From the NCBI RefSeq assembly GCF_001590835.1, contig NZ_LTAQ01000069.1:109400-173399 (forward strand): a stretch of 64,000 nucleotides of DNA, written 5' to 3'. The stretch comes from Bacillus gaemokensis (lineage in GTDB: Bacteria > Bacillota > Bacilli > Bacillales > Bacillaceae_G). The notes beneath the pieces are model-generated. The model was not told the DNA's origin, did no database searches, and was given only the letters and a program-made list of their open reading frames with translations. Positions 13,661 to 15,205 of the stretch are shown here, piece by piece. Position 1 is the stretch's first letter. Each line of letters starts with the position of its first letter. A program made the position numbers and the translations under genes.

Positions 13661-13689
13661 TTTACTTTCTGAATTTAGTGTTATATACT
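13661..13689 (+). promoter_or_regulatory. his operon promoter
   Basis: TTTACT, 17-nt spacer, TATACT. It would start transcription near 13696, about 28 nt before the leader peptide start and 250 nt before hisZ. Confidence 0.6.
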
Positions 13690-13723
13690 ATGTGAAAATA
13701 AGAGGAGAAGGGGAGTAAGGATT

Positions 13724-13777
13724 ATGTTTACAGTACAATCTATCAATATGCTTACACAACTACATCATCATACATAA
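13724..13777 (+). CDS. his leader peptide with three consecutive His codons
   Basis: A 17-codon frame MFTVQSINMLTQLHHHT with three adjacent CAT codons (13763-13771) just before the stop TAA. It is preceded by a strong ribosome site (AGGAGAAGGGGAG, about 13702-13714) and lies between the his promoter and the his operon terminator. The position, His run and downstream alternative folds are those of an attenuation leader peptide. No protein function is expected; the act of translation is the signal. Confidence 0.8.
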   Translation: MFTVQSINMLTQLHHHT

Positions 13778-13884
13778 ACCCTTGATCCTAGCGTGAACAA
13801 CGTGTAGGTACAAGGGTTATTCCCATTGTACCTACACTCTATGAAAGAGCCTTGTAGGTATTTTTTCTACAAGGCTCTTTTTAT
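13777..13884 (+). promoter_or_regulatory. his attenuator: five mutually exclusive RNA segments
   Basis: A 13777-13784 (AACCCTTG) pairs with B 13811-13818. B 13802-13812 (GTGTAGGTACA) pairs with C 13827-13837, 11 bp. C 13829-13836 (TACCTACA) pairs with D 13853-13860. D 13844-13857 pairs with E 13867-13880, 14 bp perfect, followed by TTATTTTG, the terminator. A ribosome at the stop codon covers A, so B:C and D:E form and transcription ends. A ribosome stalled at His codons leaves A free, so A:B and C:D form and the terminator is lost. Confidence 0.8.
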
Positions 13885-13942
13885 TTTGTTCGTGATGGCT
13901 ACGGTGGGCATACATTAGAAGGGAAAGGGAGTGTGATGTTAT

Positions 13943-15205
13943 ATGACAAAGTGGAAGCGAGCAAATCCAAATGGAACAAGGGACTATGTATTTGAAGAAT
14001 GTACATTAATTGAAGAAACTGAACAAAAGCTAAGACGTACTTTTTTAGAAAGAGGATATGAGGAGGTTAGAACGCCTACGATTGAATTTTATGATGTGTT
14101 TTCGTTTCAAAACCGCCCGATAGATGAGGAGAAAATGTATAAATTTTTTGATCAGCAGGGACGTATTATCGTTTTACGTCCAGATATGACGATTCCCTTA
14201 GCGAGGGTAATTGGCACGCATGGTGGAGATTCTCCTGTGAAAGTAACATATAGCGGGAATGTGTTTCGAGCAAATGAATCACTTTCTGGAAAATATAATG
14301 AGATCATTCAAACGGGGATTGAAATCATTGGGATTGATAACGTGCGAGCTGAAATAGAATGTGTTGTAAGTGTAATTCAAGCACTTCAAGGAGTAGGGAT
14401 GCATTCTTTTACAATTGAATTAGGTCAAGTTCAGTTATATAAGTGCATTATCAAAAAACTTTCGTTTAAGGAAGAAGAAGAGATGTTATTGCGCACGTAT
14501 ATAGAAAGTAAAAATTATGCGGCTTTATCGAATTTTTTACAAGAGAAAAATTTAGATCGAAGTGATGAGACAGTACGATTACTTGAGAAATTACCAAGAT
14601 TATTTGGAAAGCTGGAGGTAATTGAGGAGGCAGAAAAACTTGCTTCTAATGACGAAATGAGGCAAGCAATCGCGCGGATAAAAGAAATTTATAAAACGAT
14701 TGGGAAGTTAGGATATGGCTCATATATATCAATTGATTTAGGGATGATTCAACATCTCCATTATTATACAGGAGTTATTTTTAAGGGGTATATATATGAG
14801 ATTGGAGAAGAAATTGTGAGCGGGGGAAGATATGATGAATTGATTGGGAATTTTGGCGAGATGGCGCCAGCTGTTGGGTTAGCTGTACAAGTAAATCAAA
14901 TTGTTAGGGCACTGCAGGAACAACAAGAATCAGTAAAGCGAAAGCAACTAGACGTGATGATTTATTATACCTTGGACTGGTTAGCGGAGGCTGAAAGGTT
15001 ATGCAATTTACTTCAAAAAGATGGGTGGAAAGTGGAGCTATCTTTATTTGATAGTTTGCAAGACACCTTTCAATTTGCAAGAAAGAATAGGATCACAACT
15101 GTAATTGAAGTAGCAGGAGAATCGTTAGTGGAATATGTTTGGAAAGAAAAATGGATGATGCAGAAAGAAGGGGAAGCTTCGTGCGTAACATTCAAATTGC
15201 GTTAA
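13943..15205 (+). CDS. hisZ: ATP phosphoribosyltransferase regulatory subunit
   Basis: 420 residues, class II tRNA-synthetase-like (HisRS paralogue) without tRNA-binding function. Opens with NPNGTRDYVFEE, and the motif 2-like region around VLRPDMTIPLARV is clear. HisZ is required to activate the short form of HisG, which is exactly what follows. GGGAGTGTGATG supplies the ribosome site. First enzyme gene of the his operon. Confidence 0.94.
   Translation: MTKWKRANPNGTRDYVFEECTLIEETEQKLRRTFLERGYEEVRTPTIEFYDVFSFQNRPIDEEKMYKFFDQQGRIIVLRPDMTIPLARVIGTHGGDSPVKVTYSGNVFRANESLSGKYNEIIQTGIEIIGIDNVRAEIECVVSVIQALQGVGMHSFTIELGQVQLYKCIIKKLSFKEEEEMLLRTYIESKNYAALSNFLQEKNLDRSDETVRLLEKLPRLFGKLEVIEEAEKLASNDEMRQAIARIKEIYKTIGKLGYGSYISIDLGMIQHLHYYTGVIFKGYIYEIGEEIVSGGRYDELIGNFGEMAPAVGLAVQVNQIVRALQEQQESVKRKQLDVMIYYTLDWLAEAERLCNLLQKDGWKVELSLFDSLQDTFQFARKNRITTVIEVAGESLVEYVWKEKWMMQKEGEASCVTFKLR

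What the first reader, a model, noticed from the sequence alone, without database searches (positions are those of the whole stretch)
13661..13943. Leader-peptide (ribosome-mediated) attenuator in front of a Firmicute his operon
Seen directly: a promoter, a strong ribosome site, a 17-codon frame with CAT CAT CAT right before its stop, and five RNA segments with exact alternative pairing (A:B 8 bp, B:C 11 bp, C:D 8 bp, D:E 14 bp plus T tail). Geometry works: a ribosome stalled at the first or second His codon ends at about the stop codon and leaves segment A free (antitermination), while a ribosome at the stop codon covers A (termination). This is the enterobacterial hisL logic. Bacilli usually control amino acid operons by T-box or protein regulators, and every other biosynthetic leader in this window uses a riboswitch or T-box. 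I do not know of this element being described in the B. cereus group, but cannot check.
Basis: partly seen in the sequence, partly recalled or inferred. Interest (0 to 1): 0.85.

Follow-up and report, generated by a model that had tools for sequence, protein, structure and literature searches.

The report
Histidine-codon leader switch before his genes
A short RNA stretch in front of the histidine-making genes lets a translating ribosome test whether histidine is scarce; this was already predicted for these bacteria, but relatives found here suggest the design is widespread and has a tryptophan version that was filed as a possible riboswitch.

Summary
Observation confirmed. Window 13724-13777 encodes MFTVQSINMLTQLHHHT*, followed by segments A-E (13777-13878) with exclusive A:B+C:D and B:C+D:E pairings, then hisZ and the his operon. 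The interpretation, a ribosome-mediated transcription attenuator, is well supported. Covariance searches gave 48 further elements; 47 have tandem His codons (the exception, L114, lies before a broken hisS paralog), and 42 of the 49 precede hisZ, hisS paralogs or hisD. Both conformations covary, A:B+C:D less clearly. Segment A starts 13-16 nt after the first His codon in 37 of 39 measured. Ribosome-masked folding switches in 36 of 40 distinct members.

It is not hisL parity: a stalled ribosome leaves A free, a ribosome at the stop covers it.

It is not new for the B. cereus group: PMC2965389 (2010) and PMC9413887 (2022) predicted His leaders before hisZ, a hisS paralog and the his operon. I did not find in print the transporter targets, the fixed register, or the link to Rfam RF04312 ("trpB motif", a riboswitch candidate): two instances above its cut-off, plus one unscored look-alike, carry a leader with two Trp codons before an A arm.

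No experiment has been done.

The parts
13661..13689 (+). promoter-like site TTTACT-17-TATACT
   Evidence: consensus scan, 9 of 12; shuffles mean 1.2 such sites
13702..13715 (+). purine-rich ribosome-binding site of the leader ORF
   Evidence: sequence
13724..13777 (+). leader peptide ORF MFTVQSINMLTQLHHHT*
   Evidence: translation; tandem His codons in 47 of 48 related elements
13763..13771 (+). three His codons CAT CAT CAT (sensor)
   Evidence: sequence; CAT/CAC synonymous changes in relatives, 89 CAT and 31 CAC over 40 distinct leaders
13777..13784 (+). segment A (AACCCUUG); the pairing extends through an apical stem to about 13800
   Evidence: 8-bp pairing with B and hairpin fold
13802..13818 (+). 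segment B
   Evidence: pairs with A or with C; covariation
13826..13837 (+). segment C
   Evidence: pairs with B or with D; covariation
13846..13860 (+). segment D (5' arm of terminator)
   Evidence: pairs with C or with E; covariation
13866..13884 (+). segment E and U run (intrinsic terminator 3' arm)
   Evidence: terminator scan: 1 found, shuffles 0.2; covariation
13943..15205 (+). hisZ (ATP phosphoribosyltransferase regulatory subunit)
   Evidence: ORF; tblastn to genes annotated as this subunit; Ectobacillus relatives 65-66%
15139..20413 (+). rest of the his operon (hisG, D, B, H, A, F, I, E)
   Evidence: ORFs; gene names recalled from the translations, no family scan run on them
20426..21448 (+). 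probable hisJ (histidinol-phosphatase), last gene of the run
   Evidence: ORF; name recalled

Best explanation
A leader-peptide, ribosome-mediated transcription attenuator of the his operon. SHOWN from sequence: the leader ORF, the His codons, five segments with two exclusive pairing sets, an intrinsic terminator, and their conservation with covariation. INFERRED: when charged tRNA-His is scarce the leading ribosome stalls with His1 (or His2) in its A site. Its front edge then reaches about 13775-13778 and leaves A free, so A:B forms, C is released and pairs with D, the terminator D:E cannot form, and RNA polymerase enters hisZ. When histidine is plentiful the ribosome reaches the stop codon and covers A, so B:C forms, D is free to pair with E, and transcription terminates. 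The switch must be made while RNA polymerase has exposed D but not E (transcript ends about 13858-13870), because once E is made the terminator state wins at equilibrium whatever the ribosome does.
For: Masked folding of the window: His1 gives A:B 14.5 expected pairs, C:D 9.7, B:C 0.0; stop gives B:C 14.3, A:B 1.0, C:D 0.8 (transcript to 13860; the same for assumed footprints of +9 to +14, still switching at +16). 36 of 40 distinct members switch the same way. Covariation on 49 elements (41 distinct rows): B:C+D:E 97.0% of cells paired, 21 of 28 pairs with two-sided change, 113 such cells against 27.6 in shuffles. A:B+C:D, to which the alignment was not fitted: 84.6% paired, 50 two-sided cells against 21.2, slid controls 28-56% paired. 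His1-to-A distance 13-16 nt in 37 of 39 measured while the stop lies anywhere from +9 to +27. Downstream of the 49: hisZ 16, hisS paralog 25, hisD 1, transporters 4, unrecognised 3.
Against: No experimental data. At full length the terminator wins in every ribosome state, so the switch is kinetic and the fold model is only suggestive. Four of 40 distinct members do not switch in the model: L095, L050, L074, and L073 marginally; L052 and L096 switch only narrowly. For A:B+C:D, the number of pairs with a two-sided change (8) and of further pair types (25) are not above shuffles (169 and 210 of 500 reach them), and three column pairs fail in 21, 28 and 36 of 41 rows. The models contain the His-codon columns, so the His count among hits is partly selected; the downstream genes are not. 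Many members are close relatives of each other. In 5 of 5 genomes with a window-type hisZ (65-66%, one 52%) no element lies before hisZ.
Confidence: 0.92

Rival explanations
1. A protein (HisR/YerC-type repressor or an RNA-binding protein) or a small-molecule riboswitch controls the leader, and the small ORF is incidental.
For: HisR is the usual regulator in Bacillales (PMC9413887, passages). The B-E part resembles RF04312, which was published as a riboswitch candidate.
Against: PMC9413887 reports no HisR in the B. cereus group. The TrpR/HisR family passes its cut-off in only 1 of 19 genomes of the nearest family held; 5 more have weak matches inside long frames. Tandem His codons persist through synonymous changes at a fixed distance from A. 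The RF04312 instances examined also carry a codon-specific leader.
Confidence: 0.04
2. A sequence-specific nascent-peptide arrest (TnaC-like sensing of free histidine by the QLHHHT peptide) rather than codon-limited stalling.
For: In the window and its four closest relatives the peptide end QLHHHT* is identical.
Against: Across 40 distinct leaders the residues after the His run vary (T, G, PPRV, L, D, F, P, RN and others) and the stop lies anywhere from +9 to +27; only the His run and its distance to A are kept.
Confidence: 0.03
3. Translation-level attenuation: the leader controls exposure of the hisZ ribosome-binding site.
For: The minimum-energy fold of 13690-13943 pairs the region near the hisZ start with the leader.
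Against: A strong intrinsic terminator with a U run ends about 60 nt before hisZ and covaries.
Confidence: 0.03

Closest known systems
Histidine leader peptide of bacilli before hisZ and hisS* (Naville and Gautheret 2010, PMC2965389; passages and section 10 read)
   Same: His-codon short ORF plus terminator in front of hisZ and a hisS paralog in bacilli; almost certainly this element (inference).
   Different: The text read gives no five-segment model, register or transporter targets; figures were not seen.
Candidate RNA attenuators of his operons in six B. cereus-group species (Ashniev et al. 2022, PMC9413887; abstract, passages and section 8 read)
   Same: Three to five His codons in a row, terminator and antiterminator, his operon, no HisR in that group.
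   Different: Its table passage lists Bacillales members only in the B. cereus group; here related elements occur in 18 of 19 genomes of the family of Ectobacillus panaciterrae and 22 of 39 of the family of G668, one of them decayed. Their Additional file 6 with the structures could not be read.
Enterobacterial his leader (hisL; Rfam RF00514)
   Same: His-rich leader peptide, mutually exclusive RNA hairpins, terminator.
   Different: No RF00514 match. hisL in E. coli has 7 His codons with a predicted hairpin arm starting inside the run; here A starts 14 nt after the first His codon and a stalled ribosome leaves it free.
trpB motif (Rfam RF04312; Narunsky et al. 2024, PMC11109978; passages read)
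   Same: P1 plus terminator equal B:C plus D:E; matches window 13801-13886 at 40.6 bits, E 1.6e-4. Two instances above its cut-off have a leader ORF with two Trp codons and an A arm.
   Different: Below the family's gathering score of 59 in the window; published as a strong riboswitch candidate; Trp instead of His.

Membership tests
Ribosome-mediated (leader-peptide) transcription attenuators | Short translated ORF with tandem codons of the regulated pathway's amino acid | tested here: met
   ORF 13724-13777 with three His codons before hisZ; tandem His in 47 of 48 relatives. Translation itself not tested.
Ribosome-mediated (leader-peptide) transcription attenuators | Mutually exclusive terminator and antiterminator pairings | tested here: met
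   Covariation in both sets and masked folds; the A:B+C:D support is weaker
Ribosome-mediated (leader-peptide) transcription attenuators | Amino-acid-dependent readthrough requiring leader translation | not testable with these tools
   Needs reporter or in vitro transcription-translation
B. cereus-group his attenuator of PMC9413887 | Three to five His codons in a row directly before attenuator hairpins of the his operon | tested here: met
   Window; description in section 8
B. cereus-group his attenuator of PMC9413887 | Located in a B. cereus-group genome | tested here: inconclusive
   No genome held for the window; nearest hisZ found is Ectobacillus at 65-66%
Rfam RF00514 His leader | Match to the covariance model | tested here: not met
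   No gathering match and not among the 14 matches up to E = 10 in 13650-13950
T-box leader (RF00230) | Match to the T-box model with specifier loop | tested here: not met
   The window scan finds three T-boxes elsewhere but none here, nor a weak one in 13650-13950
Rfam RF04312 trpB motif | Score at or above gathering (59 bits) | tested here: not met
   40.6 bits in the window; 0 gathering matches in 16 related loci
HisR (YerC) regulon | HisR gene in the genome and 20-bp palindrome before the operon | not tested
   Own genome not held; no operator search made; the family is over its cut-off in 1 of 19 relatives

The most novel reading that the evidence does not exclude
The element is one form of a modular five-segment leader-peptide attenuator spread through Firmicutes and Fusobacteria, in which only the sensor codons change. 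The His form governs hisZ/his operons, a hisS paralog, hisD and transporters in several Bacilli families. The Trp form is Rfam's trpB motif (RF04312, more than 900 published members, filed as a strong riboswitch candidate), which would then be no riboswitch. A Tyr/Phe form may stand before a TrpX-like transporter gene in Enterococcus gallinarum. The common rule is that the sensor codons lie at a fixed distance from A, so that a stalled ribosome just clears A.
Probability: 0.65. Interest if true: 0.72.

Novelty: already known. Interest (0 to 1): 0.5.

Why it matters
As a his attenuator in this group it agrees with two published predictions. The new parts matter more. The conserved 13-16 nt distance between first sensor codon and segment A gives a testable geometric rule for ribosome-controlled RNA switches whose parity is the reverse of hisL as folded here. 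The same design moves between biosynthesis, tRNA synthetase and transporter genes. And a large orphan riboswitch candidate class, RF04312, may need reclassifying as Trp leader-peptide attenuators, which a simple codon-swap experiment would settle.

Tried and rejected
Considered and rejected: T-box and RF00514; peptide-specific arrest; the decayed L114 as evidence against the model, because its downstream hisS paralog is itself broken. Low-scoring model hits (below 46 bits with R3) were left out, except L128: of those screened most had no tandem-His leader and looked like plain terminators. L129 (40 bits) lies before a HisZ/HisS-like gene but has no His leader and was also left out. first put the end of D five bases short and gave a false 'no switch' for the window; corrected. 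The untranslated state is unresolved for the window: it depends on the assumed 5' end; 35 of 40 distinct members favour A:B without a ribosome. Plasmid, phage and viral searches with the His element found nothing. Pattern hits L134 and L135 were not the trpB motif. L015 is a chance match antisense to a gene. L157 showed no Trp-rich leader before its transporter gene. H3/L137 gave no RF04312 match.

Full report
WHAT IS THERE. Window 13661-13943 lies between an ORF ending at 13612 and hisZ at 13943. It holds a promoter-like site, a purine-rich ribosome site, a 17-codon ORF MFTVQSINMLTQLHHHT* (13724-13777) and five segments A-E ending in an intrinsic terminator. One Thr codon separates the three CAT codons from the stop. 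The 254-nt leader is far more stable than shuffles (z -4.5, 0 of 200). Rfam assigns nothing at gathering level here, while it finds three T-boxes, one lysine and two SAM riboswitches elsewhere in the window. ORFs read as hisZ, G, D, B, H, A, F, I, E and probably hisJ follow in the same direction (names other than hisZ are recalled from the translations).

ALREADY IN PRINT. PMC2965389 (passages; section 10) reports similar 5' UTRs with a stretch of His codons before hisZ and a hisS paralog in bacilli. PMC9413887 (abstract, passages, section 8) reports candidate RNA attenuators before his operons in six B. cereus-group species that lack HisR, and found no RF00514 motif in Firmicutes. So the element is not new for that group. 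I could not verify that the window belongs to the group: no genome is held for it, and the one genome-contig scan with hisZ returned only two Ectobacillus species.

RELATIVES. A DNA search of 19 genomes, the family of Ectobacillus panaciterrae (G001), found 4 with a match. From the window and these four, aligned as A2, I built a model with the B:C and D:E pairs (R2). It was run over 397 genomes of the order (21 with E <= 0.001) and 299 of the class (12). Sixteen elements with a His leader made model R3. R3 matched 18 of 19 genomes of the first family, 1 of 15 of G219's family, 22 of 39 of G668's family, 34 of 394 of the order and 7 of 368 of the phylum. The large searches score only 8-11 candidates a genome, and many hits near the threshold look like plain terminators, so the order, class and phylum tallies are neither lower nor upper bounds for true elements. 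I kept 49 elements including the window: hits of 59 bits or more with R3, plus L128 at 43 bits, which has its own His leader and a hisS paralog behind it. Of the 48 relatives, 47 have at least two tandem His codons. The exception, L114, has lost them and lies before a broken hisS paralog.

WHAT THEY PRECEDE (49 elements): hisZ 16, the hisS paralog 25 (NCBIfam best match NF009085 in the four scanned), hisD 1, an APC basic amino-acid permease 2, a Na+/H+-antiporter-family transporter 2, nothing recognised 3 (L009 and L010 before an unknown 154-aa protein; L067).. In L050 the hisS gene starts about 600 nt downstream. In 13 of the 19 genomes of the first family the element lies directly before a divergent hisZ (14 loci), whereas in the 5 genomes with a window-type hisZ the element is absent from hisZ and sits elsewhere or, in one (G002), was not found. 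The control element therefore seems to move between histidine genes. The HisR family (PF01371) passes its cut-off in only 1 of the 19 genomes, with weak matches inside long frames in 5 more, so loss of HisR may be older than the B. cereus group.

COVARIATION. On the first five sequences most pairs of all four helices are kept; one set of four columns changes together (B53-C82-D105-E123: U-A-U-A in the window, U-A-U-G in two, C-G-C-G in two). Pair counts on these four distinct rows were suggestive only. On 49 elements (41 distinct rows) B:C+D:E has 97.0% of cells paired, 21 of 28 pairs with two-sided change and 113 two-sided cells against 27.6 in shuffles; slid versions are 32-55% paired. This alignment was fitted to those pairs. 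A:B+C:D, to which it was not fitted, has 84.6% paired, 50 two-sided cells against 21.2, covariation score 0.249 against 0.158; but its number of pairs with two-sided change (8) and of further pair types (25) are not above shuffles (169 and 210 of 500 reach them), and two A:B column pairs and one C:D pair fail in 28, 21 and 36 of 41 rows, for A:B probably through misalignment of A.

REGISTER AND CODONS. In 40 distinct leaders (L114 left out) the run is 3 His in 34, 2 in 3, 4 in 3; codons are 89 CAT and 31 CAC. Residues after the run vary (T, G, PPRV, L, D, F, P, RN and others), and the stop lies 9 to 27 nt after the first His codon. Segment A, taken as the longest pairing with B, begins 13-16 nt after the first His codon in 37 of 39 measured (11 in L050, 19 in L074; L128 could not be measured). 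With a front edge about 12 nt ahead of the first base of the A-site codon (recalled ribosome footprint), a ribosome stalled at His1 ends just before A, and one at the stop covers all or most of it.

SWITCH. Expected pairs from partition functions, window transcript to 13860: His1 A:B 14.5, B:C 0.0, C:D 9.7; His2 13.5, 0.1, 9.6; His3 0.9, 14.4, 0.8; stop 1.0, 14.3, 0.8. The result holds for assumed footprints of +9 to +16 and for transcript ends 13858-13870; from 13874 on the terminator wins in every state. In 40 distinct members, 37 favour A:B at His1, 39 favour B:C at the stop, 36 do both; L095, L050, L074 and marginally L073 do not, and L052 and L096 do so narrowly. Without a ribosome 35 of 40 favour A:B, which would mean readthrough by default; for the window this depends on the 5' end assumed, so I do not claim it.

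HOW IT DIFFERS FROM hisL. In E. coli hisL (fetched) the ORF has seven His codons, and the arm of a downstream hairpin predicted without a ribosome or with one at His1 starts inside the His run; a ribosome stalled at a later His codon covers it. Here a stalled ribosome leaves A free. The principle is the same, the parity is reversed. The A-F description of hisL is recalled.

THE RF04312 LINK. Segments B-E match RF04312 ('trpB motif') at 40.6 bits, E 1.6e-4, below its gathering score of 59; 16 related loci have no gathering match. Narunsky et al. 2024 (PMC11109978, passages) describe it as a strong riboswitch candidate with more than 900 members, most commonly before an amino-acid-type ABC transporter, and do not rule out a classic attenuator. 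All three have, after a purine-rich ribosome site, a short ORF ending WQNWHR*, WQNWRR* or NWRSWRR*, with Trp codons 18 and 9 nt before the stop, followed at once by an A arm complementary to the left arm of P1. Masked folds of transcripts ending in D give A:B with a ribosome at either Trp codon and B:C with one at the stop, where the full-length fold also shows the terminator hairpin; in L136 the full-length fold shows the terminator hairpin with a ribosome at the Trp codons too. L139 and L154 lie before TrpX genes above the NCBIfam cut-off, about 500 and 80 nt downstream; no clear gene follows L136 closely. Before a TrpX-like gene of an Enterococcus gallinarum plasmid (below the cut-off) a similar layout has MKLLLSPQLNIAYFSYFR*; A:B to B:C switching is predicted there, but its terminator hairpin did not appear in the fold. 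L139 and L154 come from unverified records labelled as phage and look like bacterial DNA. Three instances found by similarity to one another are a lead, not a survey. Streptococcus suis trpX is reported to use a T-box (PMC9382623, search listing only), so not all trpX genes fit.

NOVELTY SEARCHES. I searched for the His element, for leader-peptide attenuation with readthrough, for the trpB motif and for Trp leaders before trpX or in Enterococcus and Listeria. Beyond the papers named above I saw no report of the transporter targets, the fixed register or a Trp leader in RF04312; most listed papers were seen only as listings. The library lacks most subscription papers, and supplementary files could not be read.

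VERDICT. A real, well-supported his leader-peptide attenuator, already predicted in print for this group; my additions are its wider family, its register rule, its reversed parity and the likely Trp version.

Noticed in passing
L136 1927-2118: Fusobacterium vincentii RF04312 instance with upstream leader MKQILTTTMRYWQNWHR* and an A arm; suggests the riboswitch candidate is a Trp leader-peptide attenuator.
   Followed up: partly
L139 1462-1648 and L154 1459-1660: Two further Trp-leader elements before TrpX genes, in unverified records labelled Enterococcus and Listeria phage that look like bacterial chromosome.
   Followed up: partly
L156 1120-1330: Enterococcus gallinarum plasmid: leader MKLLLSPQLNIAYFSYFR* with Tyr/Phe codons and a similar hairpin layout before a TrpX-like ABC transporter gene; terminator not clear in the fold.
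   Followed up: partly
L155 135-224: Ilyobacter polytropus: short ORF with three Trp codons in a row (MMAKFTWWWQNK...) before a pair of ABC transporter binding-protein genes, the first TrpX-like (below cut-off); different layout.
   Followed up: no
L114 1501-1900: An element that kept B-E but lost its His codons, in front of a hisS paralog that is itself broken (internal deletion).
   Followed up: partly
L001 2970-2984; same motif in L002: Inverted repeat CTTTCG-TTT-CGAAAG just before hisZ in two Ectobacillus species that lack the attenuator there and show no HisR over the cut-off; a candidate operator.
   Followed up: no
L010 1621-2109 and L009 1028-1516: An unknown protein of about 154 aa directly behind the His attenuator; no Pfam match for either copy, no PDB sequence match for the L010 copy.
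   Followed up: partly
G013: L085 and L091: One genome carries two attenuator-hisZ loci with different leaders (LQHHHPPRV* and LHDHHPLRG*).
   Followed up: no
L080-L089, leader end: In one lineage the His run is followed by Pro-Pro (HHHPPRV*), which may itself slow ribosomes.
   Followed up: no
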